In this document: one piece after another, positions 5,911 to 40,689 of the stretch | Numbering within the stretch: position 1 is the stretch's first letter | Layout: each line of letters starts with the position of its first letter | Assembly: GCF_005377625.1 (NCBI RefSeq) | Contig: NZ_CP040098.1 | Location: 2,225,501 to 2,289,500, forward strand | Direction: 5' to 3' | DNA length: 64,000 bases | Source: Desulfoglaeba alkanexedens ALDC | GTDB taxonomy: Bacteria; Desulfobacterota; Syntrophobacteria; Syntrophobacterales; DSM-9756 | The notes under the pieces: model-generated | What the model was told of the DNA's origin: nothing | Database searches by the model: none | The model's input: only the letters and a program-made list of their open reading frames with translations | Made by a program: the position numbers and the translations under genes

Positions 5911-6115
<205 letters not shown>

Positions 6116-6197: not shown

Positions 6198-6425
6198 CAC
6201 GCTTGCGGTTGCTTTAAAGGGTTGCTTTAAGGGTTGCTTTTGTTCCATCCTTTCGTGCAGCTGCCTTCCTGCCGACGGGGTCGGCGGGCGGGATGGTTAT
6301 CGATGGAAGGAGAGGGGGTGAGCAGGGAGAGCGCAACAGGTTGGAGCTGTTTCATCCGCATTATTCCATTCACTGGGAGGGCCCGGATTTTCGGGTCCGG
6401 AAACCATCCATTTCGGGAGGAGTTC

Positions 6426-7895
6426 ATGAAATCAAAGGCGAAATGCTTGTCATGGGTGATGTTGTCGATCTTCCTGGGTTTCGCGCTGACGTCGGTTACC
6501 ACGGGCTGGGCCCAGAGCCAGTCGGAGACTACAGAAATGGCTCCTACTGAAGCGGCACCTACGGAAGCGGCACCTACGGAAGCGGTTCCTGCGGAAGCGG
6601 TTCCTACGGAAGCGGCACCTACGGAAGCGGTTCCTGCGGAAGCAGCTTCTACGGAAGCGGCACCTACTGAAGCGGCACCTACGGAAGCGGCACCTACGGA
6701 AGCGGCACCTACGGAAGCGGCACCTACGGAAGCGGTTCCTACGGAAGCGGCACCTACGGAAGCGGTTCCTGCGGAAGAGGCTTCTACGGAAGCGGCTCCT
6801 GCGCCGGCGCCGGCGGCTCCCAAGGCGGTTCCCAAGTCCCTGAGCGAAGCCATCGACCAGGGGCTTGAAGAGGGTTTTCTAAAGGCTGAGGATCCCAAGG
6901 GTTACTTGGGGATTCCCGGAGCGCCGTCTCCAAGCTGGATCCTGGCGTTCCTGTGGGCGGTCTGGGTAGGCTGGATTTTTTCCACCGTGGGGGCCTTCGG
7001 CGGCATCATGGCCGGTGTGGGCCACCTGACCGTTTTCGGCCTCGGCGACTACGCCAGGAGTTTCAAGGACACCTCTCCTTTCTTGAACAAGCTGATTACG
7101 GACAGCATCCGGGTATCCAACCAGTTCCTGGTTGGACTGAGCGCGGTGCTTTCGACCTTCAATTATTGGAAGATGGGTCGGATTGTGCTGCCTCTCGGCA
7201 TCGCCCTGGGATTGGGGGCGATCGTGGGCGCCACAGTCATTCCGTGGCTCACCGCCGGTAAGATCAAGCTCAGCCAGTACCAGGGCTACTTCGGGATCGT
7301 CGTTTTCATTATAGGCGGCTTCCTGATCTACGAAATGACCCCACGGGGTCAGGCGGGCAAGAAGGCGGCCAGGGAGGCGGCCCAGGCCTTCGAAAAGAGT
7401 ATCAAAGAAAAGAAAAGCGATGCAGAGCTGGCGGCCAGCGGCGTGCGACTCGTCAAATTCAGCGCGACCCGGATCATCTTCACGTTCTTCGGCACCGAAT
7501 TCTCTTTCAACCCGTGGCTTGCCATCGCCGGCGGCCTCATTATTTCGGCCATCGCGTCGTTTATCGGTGTCGGCGGCGGCTTCCTCTACGTGCCGTACCT
7601 GACCAGCGTCGTCGGTCTTCCCATGTACATCGTGGCCGGGACGTCCGCCCTTGCCACTCTGCTTTCGATGATCACCAGCATCATCAACTACCTTTTCGCG
7701 GGTGCCCTGGTGAGCTGGGGGTTGGTGGGAACGGAACTGGTGGGCATCGTTGTGGGGTCCATGATCGGTCCGCGGACGTCCAAGTACATCCCGGAGAAGG
7801 GTCTGAAATGGCTCTTCATTATTCTCGCCTTTTACGTTGGCCTGCGCTACTTCTCGAAGGGCTTCTTCGGGACGAGCTGGGTGCCGCCGTACTAG
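6426..7895 (+). CDS. TSUP (TauE/SafE) family anion transporter with Ala-Pro-Thr-Glu repeat linker
   Basis: A 489-residue membrane protein. Residues 1-29 look like a cleavable signal peptide (ending GWAQ). Residues 39-123 are seventeen pentapeptides of the form [AV][PS][TA]E[AE], a low-complexity, probably periplasmic linker. From about residue 170 hydrophobic segments carry TauE/SafE features, including two internally related halves with glycine-rich turns (TVGAFGGIMAGVGH and FIGVGGGFLYVPYL). The family exports or imports sulfite, sulfoacetate or other organic anions; the substrate here cannot be read. GGGAGGAG precedes the ATG at 6426; longer upstream frames lack such a site. It is followed after 321 bases by a tightly packed four-gene set. 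The export signal plus repeat linker ahead of a TSUP domain is unusual. Confidence 0.88.
   Translation: MKSKAKCLSWVMLSIFLGFALTSVTTGWAQSQSETTEMAPTEAAPTEAAPTEAVPAEAVPTEAAPTEAVPAEAASTEAAPTEAAPTEAAPTEAAPTEAAPTEAVPTEAAPTEAVPAEEASTEAAPAPAPAAPKAVPKSLSEAIDQGLEEGFLKAEDPKGYLGIPGAPSPSWILAFLWAVWVGWIFSTVGAFGGIMAGVGHLTVFGLGDYARSFKDTSPFLNKLITDSIRVSNQFLVGLSAVLSTFNYWKMGRIVLPLGIALGLGAIVGATVIPWLTAGKIKLSQYQGYFGIVVFIIGGFLIYEMTPRGQAGKKAAREAAQAFEKSIKEKKSDAELAASGVRLVKFSATRIIFTFFGTEFSFNPWLAIAGGLIISAIASFIGVGGGFLYVPYLTSVVGLPMYIVAGTSALATLLSMITSIINYLFAGALVSWGLVGTELVGIVVGSMIGPRTSKYIPEKGLKWLFIILAFYVGLRYFSKGFFGTSWVPPY
6540..6794 (+). repeat. 15-base coding minisatellite (17 units)
   Basis: Tandem units of about GCACCTACGGAAGCG encode the pentapeptide linker of the transporter. 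Units differ mainly at GCA/GTT and ACG/GCG positions, so the array is imperfect and partly higher-order. In-frame length change is possible without breaking the gene. Confidence 0.95.
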
Positions 7896-7928
7896 GCGGG
7901 GCGAAAATACGCGCCGAGTCCCCAGGAA

Positions 7929-8053
7929 CCTGTCCGAGTACAGGTTTCAGAACCCTTTTGGTGGAGCCGGTTTGCGGCGACCCCGGTCGCGGCCAAGGTC
8001 CGCTCCACCAAGGGATCCGATCGCCGGCTTTTCATGGTCGGACAGGCTCCCGG
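7929..8053 (+). repeat. Dispersed repeat family B
   Basis: This copy aligns with 5911-6115: an opening CCTGTCCGAGTACAGG hairpin, GGAGCCGGTTTGCGGCGA, CGCGGCCAAGG, AAGGGATCCGATCG and CTTTTCATGGTCGGACAGGCTC. It sits inside the TSUP-to-8217 gap. Confidence 0.75.
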
Positions 8054-8155
8054 CACCCCCTCTGCGAGCCGGTGGGGACCTTGCTTTCAGATGCAGCACC
8101 CGCAGGGGGGCGGGGGGTTCCGCCTGAATCGCCCCGTCAGTCAGGAAAACAACAG

Positions 8156-8187
8156 GGCGGGCGCCTTCACGGGCCCGCCGTTTCCTT
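8156..8187 (+). terminator. Possible intrinsic terminator after the TSUP gene
   Basis: A GGCGGGC/GCCCGCC hairpin (8156-8162 with 8173-8179) is followed by GTTTCCTT. The T tract is interrupted, so it may only attenuate transcription into the four downstream genes. Confidence 0.4.
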
Positions 8188-8216
8188 AACGGATAACGGT
8201 TTCAAGGGGTTCGGCC

Positions 8217-8837
8217 ATGTCCCTTTACCAGCAATTGGATCCTGTGCTCATCGCGTTCTACCGCATGACGGGAATCCCCATCGTGGACTACCTGCTCGGG
8301 ACGTTTCTGCTCGCCCTGGCCACGGTGGTGCTGGGAGAATTCACGCTGTCCTGGGTGCTACGGCTGAACCGGCCGCACCTGGAAAAGCTTGAAGGCGAAA
8401 TCTCCCGAAATCACGACCTTTCCATCCAGGCGCTCAGAGAAAAGGACAAGACTGGTTTCAGACTAATGAACCGAGAGGCCAACGACGCCTTCGGCCGGTA
8501 TTTCTTCACTATGGTCGCCTATTCGGCGGGCGTGCTCTGGCCGGCCCCTTTCGCCCTGGCCTGGATGCAGATCCGCTTCACAGGTGTGGCGTTCGAATTC
8601 GTCCACCCGCTTTCCCGGGTTCTGCCGCCCGCGAACTACGTGACCACGTTCATTCTCGTCTACATCCTCGCTCGGATTCTGTTCAAGAACCTCCGTCGTC
8701 ATCTGCCGTATTTTAGGGGCGTTCAAAAGATGCTGGACGAGCAGGCGGCCGCCGCATCGAGGAGCCGTTCCCGATCGGCGGGAGCGCCCGCCGAAGCCGA
8801 AGATGGGTTTTGCGTGAACTCTTTCCAGAAGCCTTGA
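8217..8837 (+). CDS. Small integral membrane protein, perhaps EMC3/DUF106-like
   Basis: A 206-residue protein with about three hydrophobic segments (roughly residues 22-45, 98-120 and 138-155) and a polar helical stretch between the first two containing NREANDAFGRYFF. That layout, a TM helix, charged hairpin, then paired TM helices, recalls the DUF106/EMC3 branch of the YidC-Oxa1 superfamily, but similarity is weak by eye and I do not claim the function. The C-terminus is Arg/Ser/Ala-rich and probably disordered. AAGGGG precedes the ATG. It is separated by only 28 bases from the downstream receiver gene, and the next two junctions are stop-start overlaps, so the set is an operon. Confidence 0.7.
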   Translation: MSLYQQLDPVLIAFYRMTGIPIVDYLLGTFLLALATVVLGEFTLSWVLRLNRPHLEKLEGEISRNHDLSIQALREKDKTGFRLMNREANDAFGRYFFTMVAYSAGVLWPAPFALAWMQIRFTGVAFEFVHPLSRVLPPANYVTTFILVYILARILFKNLRRHLPYFRGVQKMLDEQAAAASRSRSRSAGAPAEAEDGFCVNSFQKP

Positions 8838-8865
8838 TGTGCGATAGGGTGAAAAGCAAACGATC

Positions 8866-9246
8866 ATGGCGCACGTGCTCGTACTGGACGATATGCCCGA
8901 CGCGGTGGAACTCGTCGCCAAGGTGCTTCGAAAAATGGGCCACGAAGTCTCTGGGTTCACACGGGAACAGGAGGCCATCGATCATGCCCGGTCGCAGCCG
9001 GTGGACCTGGCCATTCTGGACATAAAGTTGAAGGTGATGAGCGGGATCGAGGTGCTGCGGGAGATCAAGAAGATTCGACCCGAAACCCAGGTCATGATGC
9101 TGACGGGGTATCCCACCTTGGAATCCGCCCGCGAGGCGGTTGAGCTGGGAGCCGCGGACTTCAGTGTGAAGCCCATCGAGATCGACGAGTTGGAAAAGAA
9201 GGTATCCACTATCCTGAACCGGCCGGCTCCGCGGGACGATTCATGA
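8866..9246 (+). CDS. Stand-alone response-regulator receiver domain (CheY-like)
   Basis: A 126-residue receiver domain without output domain. Asp8/Asp9, phospho-acceptor Asp52 (LAILDIKL), Thr80 (MLTGYP) and Lys102 (SVKPIE) are all in place. It shares the TGYP and VKPIEI...ELE segments with the receiver at 4836-5201, so the two are paralogues. Its stop overlaps the next start (ATGA at 9243-9246), implying translational coupling to the PEP-synthase-like gene. No kinase gene is adjacent; the phosphate donor is unknown and might be the phosphohistidine protein next to it or a distant kinase. Confidence 0.92.
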   Translation: MAHVLVLDDMPDAVELVAKVLRKMGHEVSGFTREQEAIDHARSQPVDLAILDIKLKVMSGIEVLREIKKIRPETQVMMLTGYPTLESAREAVELGAADFSVKPIEIDELEKKVSTILNRPAPRDDS

Positions 9247-11801
9247 AGTGGTGGGCCCGAATCAAGGATGCCGCCCTCAAGGTCTTCATTCCGGACCGCC
9301 TCATCCGAACCAAGTACGAAGCGTTCAAATCCCTCTTGGAACACGATTACCTCTGCCACGAACTGCTGGCTCAACTGGAAACCTGGTACCATGAACGGCG
9401 CCTGATAGATGTGCAGGGGGTACTGAGCCGTTACCGGGTGCTTCATGGCGCCTTGGCGGCCATGATCGGCCGCCTCCAGGATATGGCGCCCGGCCGCTAC
9501 GGTCCGCTCACCGAGAGGCTCCGGGAAATCGACGAGAGGCTCCGCCCGCATCGGGTGGTTCCGCGTGTGGCGGATCCTTCCGCCCCGTTCTGCCTGCCGC
9601 TCCAAGACATCCCGGCAGAGAACCTCTTGCGTTGGGCGGGTGGAAAGGCGGCGCATCTTGCCCGGGCGCGCCGGGAACTCGGCTTGCCCGTTCCCTCGGG
9701 GTTTGTGGCCACGACGCGCGCTTTCGATGCCTTTCTCGCGGTCAGCGGTCTCCGGCGGACCATCGATGAACGGCTGGCGGAACTGGATATAGAAGACTCA
9801 AGGGCCGTGCGGGAAACCGCCGGATTTCTGGTATCGCAGGTGGCCGCGGCACCACTGCCTGCCGAAATGGAACGCGCTCTGGACGCCTGCTTCCGCAAGG
9901 TCTTTGGCGGGCGATCCGATGTGCCGGTTTTCTGCCGGAGCAGCGCCGTGGGCGAAGACGAGGCCCTTTCCTTTGCCGGCCAGTACGAATCCGTACCTCA
10001 AGTGAGTCGAGACCGGCTGCCCGCGGCCGTCCGACGGGTCTATGCCAGCAAATACGCGGAAAAGGCTCTGGTCTACCGCGTGACGAACGGGCTGGCGGAC
10101 GCGGAAACCCCCATGGCCGTTCTGGTCCAGGAAATGATCGATGCCCGGGCCGGCGGAGTGGCCTATTCACGGAACCCGCTACAGCCGGATGTCGAAGAGA
10201 TCGCCGTTTACGCGGTCTGGGGCCAGGGAGACATCCTGGTGAGCGGGGCTGTGGTACCTCACGTGTTTACCGTGTCCAGGGAAAAGTCCCAGGTCGTTCG
10301 GCTAAAATCCGGGCGCCAGGCTTCAAAGCACGTCGTCTCTGCGGAAGGAGGCCTTCGCGAGGAGCCTCTCACGGCCGAAGAAGCCGGTCTGCCGCCCATC
10401 GGGGAAAAACATGCCCTGACGCTTGCCCGCTGGCTGCTCCAGTTGGAAGAGCTCTTCGAGCACCCCCAGGATATTGAATGGTGCCTGGACGGTGAAGGGA
10501 ACCTTCGGCTGCTCCAAAGTCGGCCGCTTCAGCTGCGCGCCTGGCGCCCGCCCGCCTGTAATCCGGAGGTCCTGGAGGAAGCTGTCGAGACGGTTCTTTC
10601 GGGAGGGGAAACGGCGGCGTCCGGGGTGGGCTCCGGTCCGGTGGCCCTGATCCGGTCTCCCGAGGAAGTGTCCGAAGTTCCGGAAGGAGCCGTTCTGGTC
10701 ACGCCCGCCCTCCATTCCCGGCTGGCAGCCATTGCGGGAAGGCTCCACGGCGTCGTCGCCGAAACGGGTTCGGTGGCCGGCCATTTCGCCTCGGTGGCCA
10801 GGGAATGGCGAATCCCGGTCCTGGTTGATGTCTCCGGTGCGATGAAATCCCTCGCGCCCGGTACCGTGGTGACCGTAGACGCCTATCGCCGGAAGGTCTA
10901 TCGGGGACGGGTGGATGCCCTGCTGGACTGCGAGTGCCATCCGCGCCATCGGTTGGATGACATGCCTTTCTGGAAAAGGTTCCGGGGCCTCTTGGACGGG
11001 ATTTCACCGCTCAATCTGGTGGATCCCGGGGCTGCCGACTTTTCTATCCAGGGCTGCCGGACCTTTCACGATCTCATGCGGTTTGTGCACGAAAAGGCAC
11101 TCCAAGAGATGTTTGAGTTGGGCGGGGCACGATGGGGTCGTTTTCGCGGGGCCCGGAAACTCGCCGCATCCATTCCCCTGGTCGTGTGGGTGCTCGATCT
11201 CGACGGAGGGCTGGAGGACGAAACCAGGGCTTCCCAAGTCATTGAACCCGGACGCGTGAAGAATCCCGCCTTCCGGGCTCTGTGGAAGGGCCTGTCCGAC
11301 CCCGTCGTGGTCTGGCCGGAAGGTCTGCGGCCGCTGGACTGGAACGCTCTCGACCGAGTGAGCGGAGGGATCGTCGACTTCGAATCGCAGACCCTCAACA
11401 GCTTCGTTGCGGTCTCGTCGGACTACCTCAACCTGAACTTCCGATTCGGTTACCATTTCGTCGTGCTTGACGTTCTCTGCGGCGAAACGGCCGAAAGGAA
11501 TTACGCGGCCTTGAGTTTCCAAGGAGGTGGTGCCGGCTACCGGGGGCGGCGTTTTCGGGTTCTCTTCGTCCGAGGCGTTCTTTCTAGGTACGGGTTTGAG
11601 GCGACCGTCCAGGGCGACAATCTCCGAGCCCGTTTGCAGCAGGTTTCCCGCCCGCAGCTGCTGGAGGTCCTCGAAACCGTCGGGCGCTTGCTCGGGGTCA
11701 CCCGCCTGCTGGACATGGAAATGGAAACGGAAGGGGCCGTCGAAGCTCACGTCGCCGCCTTTCTCGAAAGAGAAGCCGCCAAGGCCGGGAAGAGGCCATG
11801 A
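9243..11801 (+). CDS. PEP-synthase-like ATP-grasp and phosphohistidine protein with novel C-terminal domain
   Basis: An 852-residue protein. After a ~120-residue helical N-terminus it carries the PPDK/PpsA ATP-grasp domain: GGKAAHLARAR, CRSSAVGEDEALSFAGQ, VQEMIDARAGGVAYSRNP and PQDIEWCLDGEGNLRLLQSRP. The swivelling phosphohistidine domain follows, with GSVAGHFASVAREW placing His514 at the catalytic position. PEP synthase and PPDK end in a PEP/pyruvate TIM barrel; here that barrel is absent and replaced by about 270 residues I do not recognise. The protein should still charge His514 from ATP, but the acceptor is unlikely to be pyruvate. Rifampin phosphotransferase is a precedent for reuse of these two domains, in another order. 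It is coupled by ATGA overlaps to both neighbours. Confidence 0.85.
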   Translation: MKWWARIKDAALKVFIPDRLIRTKYEAFKSLLEHDYLCHELLAQLETWYHERRLIDVQGVLSRYRVLHGALAAMIGRLQDMAPGRYGPLTERLREIDERLRPHRVVPRVADPSAPFCLPLQDIPAENLLRWAGGKAAHLARARRELGLPVPSGFVATTRAFDAFLAVSGLRRTIDERLAELDIEDSRAVRETAGFLVSQVAAAPLPAEMERALDACFRKVFGGRSDVPVFCRSSAVGEDEALSFAGQYESVPQVSRDRLPAAVRRVYASKYAEKALVYRVTNGLADAETPMAVLVQEMIDARAGGVAYSRNPLQPDVEEIAVYAVWGQGDILVSGAVVPHVFTVSREKSQVVRLKSGRQASKHVVSAEGGLREEPLTAEEAGLPPIGEKHALTLARWLLQLEELFEHPQDIEWCLDGEGNLRLLQSRPLQLRAWRPPACNPEVLEEAVETVLSGGETAASGVGSGPVALIRSPEEVSEVPEGAVLVTPALHSRLAAIAGRLHGVVAETGSVAGHFASVAREWRIPVLVDVSGAMKSLAPGTVVTVDAYRRKVYRGRVDALLDCECHPRHRLDDMPFWKRFRGLLDGISPLNLVDPGAADFSIQGCRTFHDLMRFVHEKALQEMFELGGARWGRFRGARKLAASIPLVVWVLDLDGGLEDETRASQVIEPGRVKNPAFRALWKGLSDPVVVWPEGLRPLDWNALDRVSGGIVDFESQTLNSFVAVSSDYLNLNFRFGYHFVVLDVLCGETAERNYAALSFQGGGAGYRGRRFRVLFVRGVLSRYGFEATVQGDNLRARLQQVSRPQLLEVLETVGRLLGVTRLLDMEMETEGAVEAHVAAFLEREAAKAGKRP

Positions 11802-12922
11802 TCGCTTACCATCTCAATTGGATCACCGATCAGCTTGCCGTGGGGCATGCTCCCATGTCCTACGCGGAGTTGGATTCTCTGCGGGAGCAGGGCATCGACG
11901 CCCTCGTGAACCTTTGCGGCGAGTACTGTGACCTCCATGAAATCGAAAAGCGCGCGGGTTTCGACGTCTACTACCTCCCCGTGACCGACAATGAAGCGCC
12001 CCGCCTGGAAGAGCTCGAAAAGGCCCTCGACTGGCTGGACGAAGCCATTTACCTGGGGAAGAAGGTCCTGATTCACTGCCGTTTCGGTGTCGGCAGGACG
12101 GGAACCTTCGTAACCGCCTATCTGCTGAGGCGCGGGTTCGGCCTCAAGCTGGCCAAGCAGACGCTCAAGAACCTTCGTTCGGCGCCGGCGAGCTTCAACC
12201 AGTGGTGGCTGCTGAGGAAGTACGGCCGAAAAGAAGGGACGCTGACCCTGCGCGAACCCACCCTGGAAATGAGTCACTTGGTGGACCTTTCCACGTTCTT
12301 TTCCGAGTATGAAGAGATCCTGTACGAGGCGGACCGGTCCTTCCTGGACTGGTCCGCGGAAGTCCCCCGGCTGGAAAGCTGCGGGCTCGGAACCGATGCC
12401 TGCTGCGGGCGGTTTCTACAGCTCCAGTTTATCGAAACGGTCTACCTCAACCACCAACTGAACCGCCGGCTCACCAGCGAAGAACGGCGGGAGACGATCC
12501 GCCGTGGGGTGGAAGCCGGTCAACGGTATAGGGGTTCCCGGATGCCGGACGGCGATCCGGGCGGTGCGGATGAGCGCTACCGCTGCCCGTTGAGCGTGGA
12601 CCGGCTCTGCATCCTCTACGAGTACCGGCCGCTGGTCTGCCGGATTTACGGCATCCCGGTGGTCTACCAAGGCCGCATCTGCTGGTGGGCGATCGAGCCG
12701 GAAAAGGCGTCCGAAGAGCTGCGGCCGTTCGATCTGGACCTGGCATCGCGGAAGCTCAACGCCCTTTCCCGCCGGCTGTTCCACGCCTTGACCGCCCTGC
12801 CGCTCGAAGACCGCAGCCTGATCTTTCCCGTCACCCACGTGGTGTCCGGAAAGTTCGTGGAAGACTACTTCGAGTTCCTCCTCCATACAGGCGCGAAAAG
12901 GAGTTCGTCCGGCCGCGCCTAG
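11798..12922 (+). CDS. Dual-specificity phosphatase fused to a YkgJ-like cysteine-cluster domain
   Basis: A 374-residue two-domain protein. The N-terminal half is a cysteine-based protein phosphatase: P-loop HCRFGVGRTG with nucleophile Cys94 and Arg100, and a candidate general acid Asp64 in PVTDNEAP. The C-terminal half has the cysteine pattern of YkgJ/UPF0153 proteins, which bind Fe or Zn: CGLGTDACCGRF, then CPLSVDRLCILYEYRPLVCRIYG. The fusion suggests a phosphatase responsive to metal or redox state, but that is inference. The start overlaps the stop of the PEP-synthase-like gene, so kinase-like and phosphatase functions are translated together. It is the last gene of the cluster; a repeat follows directly. 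Confidence 0.88.
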   Translation: MIAYHLNWITDQLAVGHAPMSYAELDSLREQGIDALVNLCGEYCDLHEIEKRAGFDVYYLPVTDNEAPRLEELEKALDWLDEAIYLGKKVLIHCRFGVGRTGTFVTAYLLRRGFGLKLAKQTLKNLRSAPASFNQWWLLRKYGRKEGTLTLREPTLEMSHLVDLSTFFSEYEEILYEADRSFLDWSAEVPRLESCGLGTDACCGRFLQLQFIETVYLNHQLNRRLTSEERRETIRRGVEAGQRYRGSRMPDGDPGGADERYRCPLSVDRLCILYEYRPLVCRIYGIPVVYQGRICWWAIEPEKASEELRPFDLDLASRKLNALSRRLFHALTALPLEDRSLIFPVTHVVSGKFVEDYFEFLLHTGAKRSSSGRA

Positions 12923-39645: not shown

Positions 39646-39727
<82 letters not shown>

Positions 39728-39744
39728 GTGCAGATCTTTTGCTT

Positions 39745-39838
39745 CTTGTTCCCAAGCTCCAGCTTGGGAACACAACTGTGCAGAAGCTCCAGCTTCGGTG
39801 AGGCCGTTCCCAAGCCATAGCTTGGGAACGAGGGGAAA
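39745..39838 (+). repeat. Dispersed repeat family A
   Basis: A single copy flanked on both sides by heptamer arrays; it matches 20766-20862 with CCATAG for CCAGAG in the second palindrome. Confidence 0.9.
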
Positions 39839-39841
39839 ACA

Positions 39842-39952
<111 letters not shown>

Positions 39953-39966
39953 GGTGCAGATCTTTT

Positions 39967-40689
39967 GCTTCTTGTTCCCAAGCTCCAGCTTGGGAACACA
40001 ACTGTGCAGAAGCTCCAGCTTCGGTGAGGCCGTTCCCAAGCCATAGCTTGGGAACGAGGGGAAAGACCACTTCGAGATCCTAGCGAGCTTCCTAGAAAGA
40101 CAGCGGGTTTCGCTGTAGCAGGAGGGAAGCTGGAGCTTCCCGGGCAGGGCGTTCCCAAGCTGGAGCTTGGGAACGAGCGGAAACTTATTCAGCGTGTACC
40201 ACGGTTTGCTTCTTGTTCCCAAGCTCCAGCTTGGGAACACAACTGTGCAGAAGCTCCAGCTTCGGTGAGGCCGTTCCCAAGCCATAGCTTGGGAACGAGG
40301 GGAAAGACCACTTCGAGATCCTGGCGAGCTTCCTAGAAAGACAGCGGGTTTCGCTGTAGCAGGAGGGAAGCTGGAGCTTCCCGGGCAGGGCGTTCCCAAG
40401 CTGGAGCTTGGGAACGAGCGGAAACTTATTCAGCGTGTACCACGGTTTGCTTCTTGTTCCCAAGCTCCAGCTTGGGAACACAACTGTGCAGAAGCTCCAG
40501 CTTCGGTGAGGCCGTCCCCAAGCCATAGCTTGGGAACGAGGGGAAAGACCACTTCGAGATCCTGGCGAGCTTCCTAGAAAGACAGCGGGTTTCGCTGTAG
40601 CAGGAGGGAAGCTGGAGCTTCCCGGGCAGGGCGTTCCCAAGCTGGAGCTTGGGAACGAGCGGAAACTTATTCAGCGTGTACCACGTTTT
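39967..40689 (+). repeat. Three tandem 241-base units containing family A
   Basis: Each unit starts GCTTCTTGTTCCCAAGCTCC (39967, 40208 and 40449). It contains a family A copy, then ACCACTTCGAGATCCTGGCG, AGACAGCGGGTTTCGCTGTA, a GGGAAGCTGGAGCTTCCC palindrome and a reversed family A half, ending TTATTCAGCGTGTACCACG. The units differ by only a few bases. Confidence 0.95.

What the first reader, a model, noticed from the sequence alone, without database searches (positions are those of the whole stretch)
11798..12922. Protein phosphatase fused to a YkgJ-type metal-binding domain
Complete HCxxGxxRT phosphatase loop and complete YkgJ cysteine set occur on one chain. This would allow metal or redox control of dephosphorylation. 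I know of no described example.
Basis: partly seen in the sequence, partly recalled or inferred. Interest (0 to 1): 0.5.

Follow-up and report, generated by a model that had tools for sequence, protein, structure and literature searches.

The report
Phosphatase–cysteine-domain fusion of sulfate reducers
This is a real, conserved bacterial protein that joins a phosphate-removing enzyme to a cysteine-rich, perhaps metal-binding domain; it belongs to a gene cluster that affects nitrate sensitivity in two sulfate-reducing bacteria, and it may be the off-switch of a phosphate-based control circuit.

Summary
The fusion is real: ORF 11798-12922 (374 aa) joins a DSP-type phosphatase (1-150) to a YkgJ-like domain (160-371). 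Both halves recur in 42 of 395 sampled genomes of the phylum. "Complete YkgJ cysteine set" is wrong: 17 of 17 aligned stand-alone relatives have 8 conserved Cys, this protein 6, and PF03692 scores below cut-off. A second phosphatase cysteine, C40, is invariant (26/26) at a PTEN-Cys71-like place (numbering recalled). The gene overlaps a PEP-synthase-like gene (swivel-His kept, PEP barrel not found), is fused to it in 3 of 29 loci, and often travels with receiver, sensor kinase, PhnD-like and TauE genes. All 42 fusion genomes, and all 144 with the PEP-synthase-like family, carry dsrA or aprA (197 of 395 do). This module matches the Desulfovibrio "nitrate cluster" DVU0251-0245/Dde_0597-0605 (PMC4001038) in gene order; there the phosphatase is annotated without a second domain in the text I saw. 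In D. vulgaris, mutants of the PEP-synthase-like, receiver and TauE genes resist nitrate while the phosphatase mutant does not; in G20 it does. I favour an oxyanion-uptake phospho-switch with PTP-YkgJ as opposing arm. Substrate, metal and redox gating are inferred.

The parts
11798..12922 (+). PTP-YkgJ fusion gene, 374 aa; its ATG overlaps the TGA of the upstream gene (ATGA)
   Evidence: both halves in 42 of 395 phylum genomes
11798..12247 (+). DSP-type phosphatase domain, residues 1-150
   Evidence: Pfam DSPc, Tc-R-P and PTP-SAK above cut-off; Tk-PTP fold Z 21.2
12074..12100 (+). P-loop HCRFGVGRT, residues 93-101 (C94 at 12077-12079)
   Evidence: H93, C94, G97, G99, R100 26/26
11987..11989 (+). 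D64, candidate general acid
   Evidence: 26/26; aligned with the PIPD of Tk-PTP and ShufPTP
11915..11917 (+). C40 (NLCxE), candidate resolving cysteine
   Evidence: 26/26; PTEN alignment range with recalled numbering
12236..12274 (+). linker, residues 147-159
   Evidence: pLDDT under 50
12275..12910 (+). YkgJ-like domain, residues 160-371
   Evidence: many stand-alone relatives align from about profile position 160; A3
12380..12640 (+). Cys codons C195 (12380), C202-C203 (12401-12406), C263 (12584), C271 (12608), C281 (12638)
   Evidence: C203/C263/C271/C281 26/26; C195 and C202 23/26
9243..11801 (+). PEP-synthase-like protein, 852 aa
9636..10535 (+). its PPDK_N ATP-grasp domain (residues 132-431)
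   Evidence: Pfam 240.3 bits
10680..10889 (+). its swivelling phosphohistidine domain (residues 480-549), H514 at 10782-10784
   Evidence: Pfam PEP-utilizers 58.1 bits; H514 24/24
10965..11789 (+). its C-terminal region (about 575-849), no family or fold assigned
   Evidence: no Pfam hit at E up to 1; best PDB sequence stretches end at or before profile position 582; not tested alone by fold search
8866..9246 (+). stand-alone receiver, 126 aa; overlaps the PEP-synthase-like gene
   Evidence: Pfam Response_reg 89.2 bits; D8, D9, D52, K102 20/20
8217..8837 (+). 206-aa gene of no recognised family; relatives in L030, L050, L054
6234..7895 (+). TauE/SafE permease gene (true start probably internal)
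   Evidence: Pfam TauE 85.0 bits; family in 6 of 29 loci, window included

Best explanation
The protein is the dephosphorylating arm of a phospho-switch that sets oxyanion uptake or handling in sulfate-respiring bacteria. Shown here: intact phosphatase residues, a YkgJ-like half with four invariant cysteines, tight linkage and occasional fusion to a PEP-synthase-like protein with ATP-grasp and swivel-His domains, frequent receiver, sensor kinase, PhnD-like and TauE neighbours, and confinement to dsrA/aprA genomes in the phylum sample. Published for the matching Desulfovibrio cluster: nitrate-resistance phenotypes. Inferred: the PEP-synthase-like protein takes phosphate from ATP onto H514 and, with the receiver, keeps a TauE-type permease route active; PTP-YkgJ removes the phosphate; its activity is gated by the thiol state of C94/C40 and by a metal or Fe-S ligand on C203/C263/C271/C281.
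For: ORFs of 1252-1255 aa with both proteins in L032, L034, L035. Of 29 loci: 3 fused, 21 adjacent on the same strand, 2 both present but not adjacent, 3 without it in the stretch held. All 42 fusion genomes have the PEP-synthase-like family; of 36 with a listed place, 34 have it within 5 kb. 42 of 42 and 144 of 144 carry dsrA or aprA, against 197 of 395. Residues invariant. Same gene order as DVU0251-0245; D. vulgaris mutants in DVU0246 (PEP-synthase-like), DVU0247 (receiver), DVU0250 and DVU0251 (TauE) grew in 100 mM nitrate, the DVU0245 (phosphatase) mutant did not; G20 cluster mutants were mildly sick on thiosulfate (unpublished data cited there; PMC4001038). C40 at a PTEN-Cys71-like place; PTEN Cys71-Cys124 disulfide (PMC7226887, passages).
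Against: In D. alaskensis G20 the phosphatase mutant Dde_0605 was nitrate-resistant (+2.08) like the others, against D. vulgaris DVU0245 (-6.04); the authors call pooled and single-mutant data not fully consistent and propose a leaky thiosulfate transporter. I had no sequence of DVU0245/Dde_0605, so orthology rests on order, annotation and length. No substrate, phosphotransfer, metal or redox response is measured. The window locus lacks members of the HK and PhnD families in its first 22 kb. TauE is in only 6 of 29 loci. G247's listed partner copies are 128 and 374 kb off; G373's is on another contig; L029, L033, L041 show none in the stretch held. 102 of 144 genomes with the partner family lack the fusion by this search. 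Counts are not corrected for phylogeny.
Confidence: 0.4

Rival explanations
1. The YkgJ-like half is a structural or docking domain (one Zn or no metal) that brings the phosphatase to its partner; it senses nothing.
For: Two of the eight cysteines of stand-alone relatives are lost and two more vary; PF03692 below cut-off.
Against: Four cysteines in a CPL..C..RP..CR frame are invariant in 26 of 26; C40 in the other half hints at redox chemistry on its own.
Confidence: 0.3
2. The phosphatase acts on a small phosphorylated metabolite made by the PEP-synthase-like partner; the pair is a metabolic couple or makes a small signal.
For: The partner resembles PEP synthase and rifampin phosphotransferase, which phosphorylate small molecules; the phosphatase half passes PTP-NADK by 1 bit and comes near PTPlike_phytase (25.4 of 27 bits).
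Against: Receiver (20 of 29 loci) and sensor kinase (13 of 29) point to signalling; no metabolic family stood out in the neighbour clusters shown, the acyl-CoA dehydrogenase being in 4 of 29.
Confidence: 0.2
3. The YkgJ half takes part in the dissimilatory sulfite reductase system (for example cofactor handling), and the phosphatase couples it to signalling.
For: 27 of 76 stand-alone relatives with a listed dsrA place lie 1.0-3.7 kb from dsrA (no shuffled control was run).
Against: Fusion and aligned stand-alone domains are split by one 100/100 branch; the fusion is far from the listed dsrA in the window genome, G015, G307 and G415; the Desulfovibrio phenotypes concern nitrate.
Confidence: 0.06

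Closest known systems
Desulfovibrio 'nitrate cluster' DVU0251-DVU0245 / Dde_0597-Dde_0605 (PMC4001038; abstract, section 14 and passages read)
   Same: TauE, conserved hypothetical, PhnD-type (PtxB), sensor kinase, receiver, PPDK/PEP-utilizing protein, phosphatase, in this order; DVU0245 1110 bp and DVU0247 360 bp fit the fusion and receiver lengths
   Different: Window lacks PhnD-like and HK; the second domain of the phosphatase is not mentioned in the passages seen; sequences not compared
Tk-PTP / ShufPTP small phosphatases (PDB 5z5a, 9e9l)
   Same: Fold, HCx5R loop and candidate general acid
   Different: Single-domain; no cysteine at the C40 position
Stand-alone YkgJ-type proteins (PF03692) of the same phylum
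   Same: Homologous over about 200 aa (E to 5.2e-37); same CPL..C..RP..CR frame
   Different: 8 conserved cysteines, no phosphatase half, some beside dsrA
PEP synthase / PPDK / rifampin phosphotransferase (partner protein)
   Same: ATP-grasp plus swivel-His domains
   Different: PEP/pyruvate barrel not found; NCBIfam scores far below cut-offs
PTEN
   Same: Cysteine at a Cys71-like place plus catalytic cysteine (numbering recalled)
   Different: No YkgJ half; weak similarity (E 4.4e-6); disulfide untested here
AioX-AioS-AioR oxyanion sensing (PMC5908839, start of abstract in the listing)
   Same: Periplasmic oxyanion-binding protein with a signal transduction system, as PhnD-like + HK in 9 of 29 loci here
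   Different: Receiver here has no output domain found; PEP-synthase-like and PTP-YkgJ partners

Membership tests
DSP-type cysteine phosphatase (Pfam DSPc) | HCxxGxxR[ST] P-loop | tested here: met
   26/26
DSP-type cysteine phosphatase (Pfam DSPc) | score above curated cut-off; fold | tested here: met
   53.9 vs 33.5 bits; Z 21.2, rmsd 1.8 A, 145 residues
DSP-type cysteine phosphatase (Pfam DSPc) | general-acid Asp | tested here: met
   D64 26/26, aligned to Tk-PTP PIPD; role inferred
DSP-type cysteine phosphatase (Pfam DSPc) | phosphatase activity | not testable with these tools
   needs assay
YkgJ / CxxCxxCC (PF03692) | score above curated cut-off | tested here: not met
   14.9 and 15.9 bits vs 23; search of the own genome with PF03692 gave four other places, not this one
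YkgJ / CxxCxxCC (PF03692) | full cysteine set of the nearest stand-alone members | tested here: not met
   6 of 8 columns
YkgJ / CxxCxxCC (PF03692) | homology to members over the domain | tested here: met
   E 5.2e-37 over positions 161-371; four stand-alone relatives scanned all pass PF03692
YkgJ / CxxCxxCC (PF03692) | bound metal or Fe-S | not testable with these tools
   needs metal analysis
PEP synthase (partner) | ATP-grasp domain and swivel His | tested here: met
   PPDK_N 240.3 bits; H514 24/24
PEP synthase (partner) | PEP/pyruvate-binding C-terminal barrel | tested here: not met
   no Pfam hit beyond residue 549 at E up to 1; order of strands and helices after 575 in the model is not that of a beta/alpha barrel; the region was not searched alone by fold
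PEP synthase (partner) | NCBIfam equivalog cut-off | tested here: not met
   260.5 vs 598 and 244.7 vs 739.75 bits
Receiver domain (8866-9246) | acidic pair, phospho-acceptor Asp, Lys | tested here: met
   D8, D9, D52, K102 20/20
Desulfovibrio nitrate cluster | TauE, conserved hypothetical, receiver, PPDK-like and phosphatase genes in this order | tested here: met
   window 6234-12922 against Table 3 of PMC4001038; by annotation and order, not sequence
Desulfovibrio nitrate cluster | PhnD/PtxB-type protein and sensor kinase in the cluster | tested here: not met
   no member of either family in the first 22 kb of the window; present in 9 and 13 of 29 loci
PTEN-type redox switch | resolving cysteine forms a disulfide with the catalytic one | tested here: inconclusive
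   C40 26/26; correspondence from alignment ends plus recalled numbering; disulfide not tested

The most novel reading that the evidence does not exclude
A signalling system of sulfate-respiring bacteria in which an ATP-driven, PEP-synthase-like swivel-histidine protein is the kinase and a thiol/metal-gated PTP-YkgJ the opposing phosphatase, at times on one chain of about 1250 residues, under a sensor kinase and receiver, to gate sulfur-oxyanion (and by leakage nitrate) entry; a switch unlike classical two-component, Hanks-type or PTS signalling.
Probability: 0.2. Interest if true: 0.8.

Novelty: new variant of a known kind. Interest (0 to 1): 0.5.

Why it matters
The nitrate cluster of Desulfovibrio has mutant phenotypes but, in its authors' words, poorly annotated genes, and they leave its native functions open (PMC4001038). 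Reading its last gene as a phosphatase with a cysteine-rich half, and its neighbour as a swivel-His phosphotransfer protein without a PEP barrel, gives a concrete, testable model. In 395 phylum genomes neither occurred without dsrA or aprA, so they are candidate controls of sulfate respiration, and of nitrate treatment against souring.

Tried and rejected
Sequencing-error fusion: rejected. Of the 42 genomes, 39 match over both halves in one stretch (G142 with one TAG inside), G078 and G170 in two stretches of one open frame, G216 split over two contigs. At most five candidates per genome were scored there, so 42 is a lower bound.

Solved YkgJ structure: none by sequence (best E 0.27, unrelated). 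Fold searches were filled by the phosphatase half and by residues 114-569 of the partner, so the other parts are hardly tested.

Plasmid origin: 15 records match, none over 80% of the query; the five rows shown cover 34-47% from its phosphatase end.

Papers: searches listed none on the fusion. One search had 78 papers, 15 listed; one search had 95, 12 listed; I opened four of these besides PMC4001038. In PMC4215793 and PMC10102598 (find only) 'phosphatase' and the cluster's locus tags I searched do not occur; PMC10591310 and PMC10504309 (find only) show no such gene; PMC3333781 (find only) has none of the four tags. It made me add the nitrate-cluster reading; I left the main confidence at 0.4, because the two strains disagree on the phosphatase, and lowered the small-molecule and dsr rivals slightly.

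In one search my TauE query was out of frame; its TauE rows are not used (TauE neighbours come). Clusters contain antisense ORFs, which I ignored.
Full report
Observation. The ORF at 11798-12922 codes for 374 aa without interruption. Residues 1-150 are a DSP-type phosphatase: Pfam Tc-R-P 2.1e-18, DSPc 2.1e-14 and PTP-SAK 4e-13, all above cut-off. Closest solved sequences: ShufPTP (7.6e-21) and Tk-PTP (7.1e-18). The AlphaFold2 model (mean pLDDT 85.7, pTM 0.61) has a stretch of pLDDT under 50 at 147-159; its N-terminal half matches Tk-PTP (Z 21.2, rmsd 1.8 A, 145 residues). The C-terminal half resembles PF03692 (YkgJ), but at 14.9 bits or 15.9 when scanned alone, under the cut-off of 23.

Cysteines. 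In 26 aligned fusion proteins (A1) C40, C94, C203, C263, C271 and C281 are invariant; C195 and C202 are 23/26, C44 20/26. Against 17 stand-alone relatives (A3), eight columns are Cys in all 17; the window protein has six. So 'complete set' is overstated.

A second redox hint is in the phosphatase half. C40 lies in an invariant NLCxE motif. phmmer aligns this stretch with PTEN (1d5r, query 10-90 to chain 63-142; letters not shown), which would put C40 at chain position 65; that this is PTEN Cys71 rests on recalled numbering. Tk-PTP, ShufPTP and 25xa have no Cys there. In PTEN, Cys71 and Cys124 form a reversible inhibitory disulfide (PMC7226887, passages).

Spread. A protein search of 40 genomes of kin matched 18: 15 (own included) to the fusion or its pieces, G039 only to the YkgJ half, G008 and G031 only to the phosphatase half. 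A scan of GTDB species contigs gave 17 loci; titles include Syntrophobacteraceae, Desulfoferrobacter suflitae, Candidatus Desulfobia, Humidesulfovibrio, Desulfobulbaceae and Desulfovibrionales, others only 'Deltaproteobacteria', 'Proteobacteria', 'delta proteobacterium' or 'bacterium'. In 395 phylum genomes 42, of 30 genera, hold both halves. A tree of 26 fusion and 17 stand-alone domains splits the two by one 100/100 branch, which fits one fusion event; the stand-alone sample is small and chosen.

Neighbourhood. The fusion's ATG overlaps the TGA of an 852-aa gene with PPDK_N and swivelling PEP-utilizers domains; H514 is 24/24. PEP-synthase best stretches end at profile position 568 or before, no Pfam family covers the last 300 residues, and NCBIfam scores are far under cut-off: PEP-synthase-like, not a PEP synthase. 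In L032, L034 and L035 it and PTP-YkgJ are one ORF of 1252-1255 aa. Of 29 loci, 3 are fused, 21 adjacent, 2 (L031, L040) have both but apart, 3 (L029, L033, L041) show none in the stretch held. A receiver is in 20 of 29 (next to the pair, same strand, in 17), a sensor kinase in 13, a PhnD-like protein in 9, TauE in 6, the 206-aa family in 4, an acyl-CoA dehydrogenase in 4; many loci are short contigs. Receivers keep D8, D9, D52 and K102 in 20 of 20. The window has TauE, 206-aa gene, receiver, PEP-synthase-like and PTP-YkgJ genes in a row, and no member of the sensor-kinase or PhnD families in its first 22 kb.

Link to sulfate respiration. On the same 395 genomes dsrA (TIGR02064, E up to 1e-30) matched 190 (188 over cut-off), aprA (TIGR02061, E up to 1e-100) 163 (159 over cut-off); 197 have at least one. 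Fusion: 39 of 42 with dsrA (not G339, G115, G080), 41 of 42 with aprA (not G239), 42 of 42 with one or the other. PEP-synthase-like family (E up to 1e-100): 144 genomes, 138 with dsrA, 139 with aprA, 144 with one or the other. All 42 fusion genomes have that family; of 36 with a listed place 34 are within 5 kb, not G247 and G373. Fisher p values (1.8e-14, 3e-63) ignore relatedness. The converse fails: 155 of 197 dsrA/aprA genomes lack the fusion, 53 of 197 the PEP-synthase-like family.

Stand-alone relatives. Of 95 listed rows 83 are in dsrA-bearing genomes; of 76 with a listed dsrA place, 27 lie 1.0-3.7 kb from dsrA, 11 further off on the contig, 38 on other contigs; no shuffled control was run. 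In L069 the neighbours include a TPR gene and a HEAT-repeat gene (Pfam); similar genes were seen by eye in several other loci. The dsr/YkgJ word searches gave no paper on this among those listed.

Known cluster. PMC4001038 (abstract, section 14, passages) describes the 'nitrate cluster' DVU0251-0245/Dde_0597-0605: TauE-like permease, conserved hypothetical, PtxB/PhnD type, histidine kinase, receiver, PPDK/PEP-utilizing protein, protein-tyrosine/dual-specificity phosphatase. This is the order found here (L030 and the window for the TauE end; L032, L034, L054, L055, L057 for PhnD-HK-receiver-PEP-synthase-like). DVU0245 has 1110 bp, long for a lone phosphatase domain and right for the fusion; its sequence was not compared. 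Mutants of DVU0246, DVU0247, DVU0250 and DVU0251 grew with 100 mM nitrate as without; the DVU0245 transposon mutant (insertion at bp 773 of 1110) and a deletion (data not shown there) were inhibited. In G20 the Dde_0605 mutant gained (+2.08), in D. vulgaris pools DVU0245 lost (-6.04) and DVU0250 lost (-5.82) though its isolated mutant resisted. The authors suggest a leaky thiosulfate transporter.

Mechanism. I read this as a phospho-switch on oxyanion entry: the PEP-synthase-like protein and receiver favour uptake, PTP-YkgJ reverses them, its thiol or metal state gates it. The D. vulgaris data fit opposed roles; the G20 datum does not. Substrate, direction, gating and target are inferred.

Verdict. 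Real fusion with a partly wrong cysteine claim; its gene cluster is known by phenotype, while the two-domain make-up, the partner's lack of a found barrel, the single-chain fusions and the dsrA/aprA confinement did not appear in the text I saw. New variant of a known kind; interest 0.5.

Noticed in passing
L069-L083; Stand-alone YkgJ-type genes lie 1.0-3.7 kb from dsrA in 27 genomes of the phylum, in several loci (by eye) with a TPR gene and a CPFC/HEAT-repeat gene; candidate dsr-linked genes.
   Followed up: partly
G000:C1:2080448-2081484 and G000:C1:2073086-2074948: In the window's own genome two PF03692 matches lie about 5.5-6.5 kb after aprA.
   Followed up: no
L088, L089, L090, L091: Further paralogues of the PEP-synthase-like protein in many of these genomes, near receivers, a TauE gene (L090) and a sigma-54 activator (L089); in L088, L090, L091 two paralogues lie close together.
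   Followed up: partly
L092:6056-9238, L093:5571-8729, L094:5634-8819: A longer form (about 1053-1062 aa) of the PEP-synthase-like protein; only PPDK_N and PEP-utilizers found in the one scanned (L093).
   Followed up: no
window 13040, 40152, 40393, 40634 (+) and 20778, 21019, 39752, 39978, 40219, 40460, 50764, 51012, 62297 (core, other strand): A palindromic element, 22 bases, 4 copies in one and 9 in the other orientation, one just downstream of the fusion gene.
   Followed up: partly
window 39646-40689: Tandem arrays with 7-base units and 226/241-base units, 99-100% matches.
   Followed up: no
window 6539-6800: 15-base tandem repeat, 17.5 copies, in the 5' part of the TauE-type gene.
   Followed up: no
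window 6048-6097: A run of 50 T in a window of 61% GC; possibly an artefact.
   Followed up: no
L040:9405-11498, also L034 and L033: The linked sensor kinases have a cysteine-rich stretch (CWE.MDC ... CW) before the PAS domain, seen by eye; a possible second redox or metal input.
   Followed up: no
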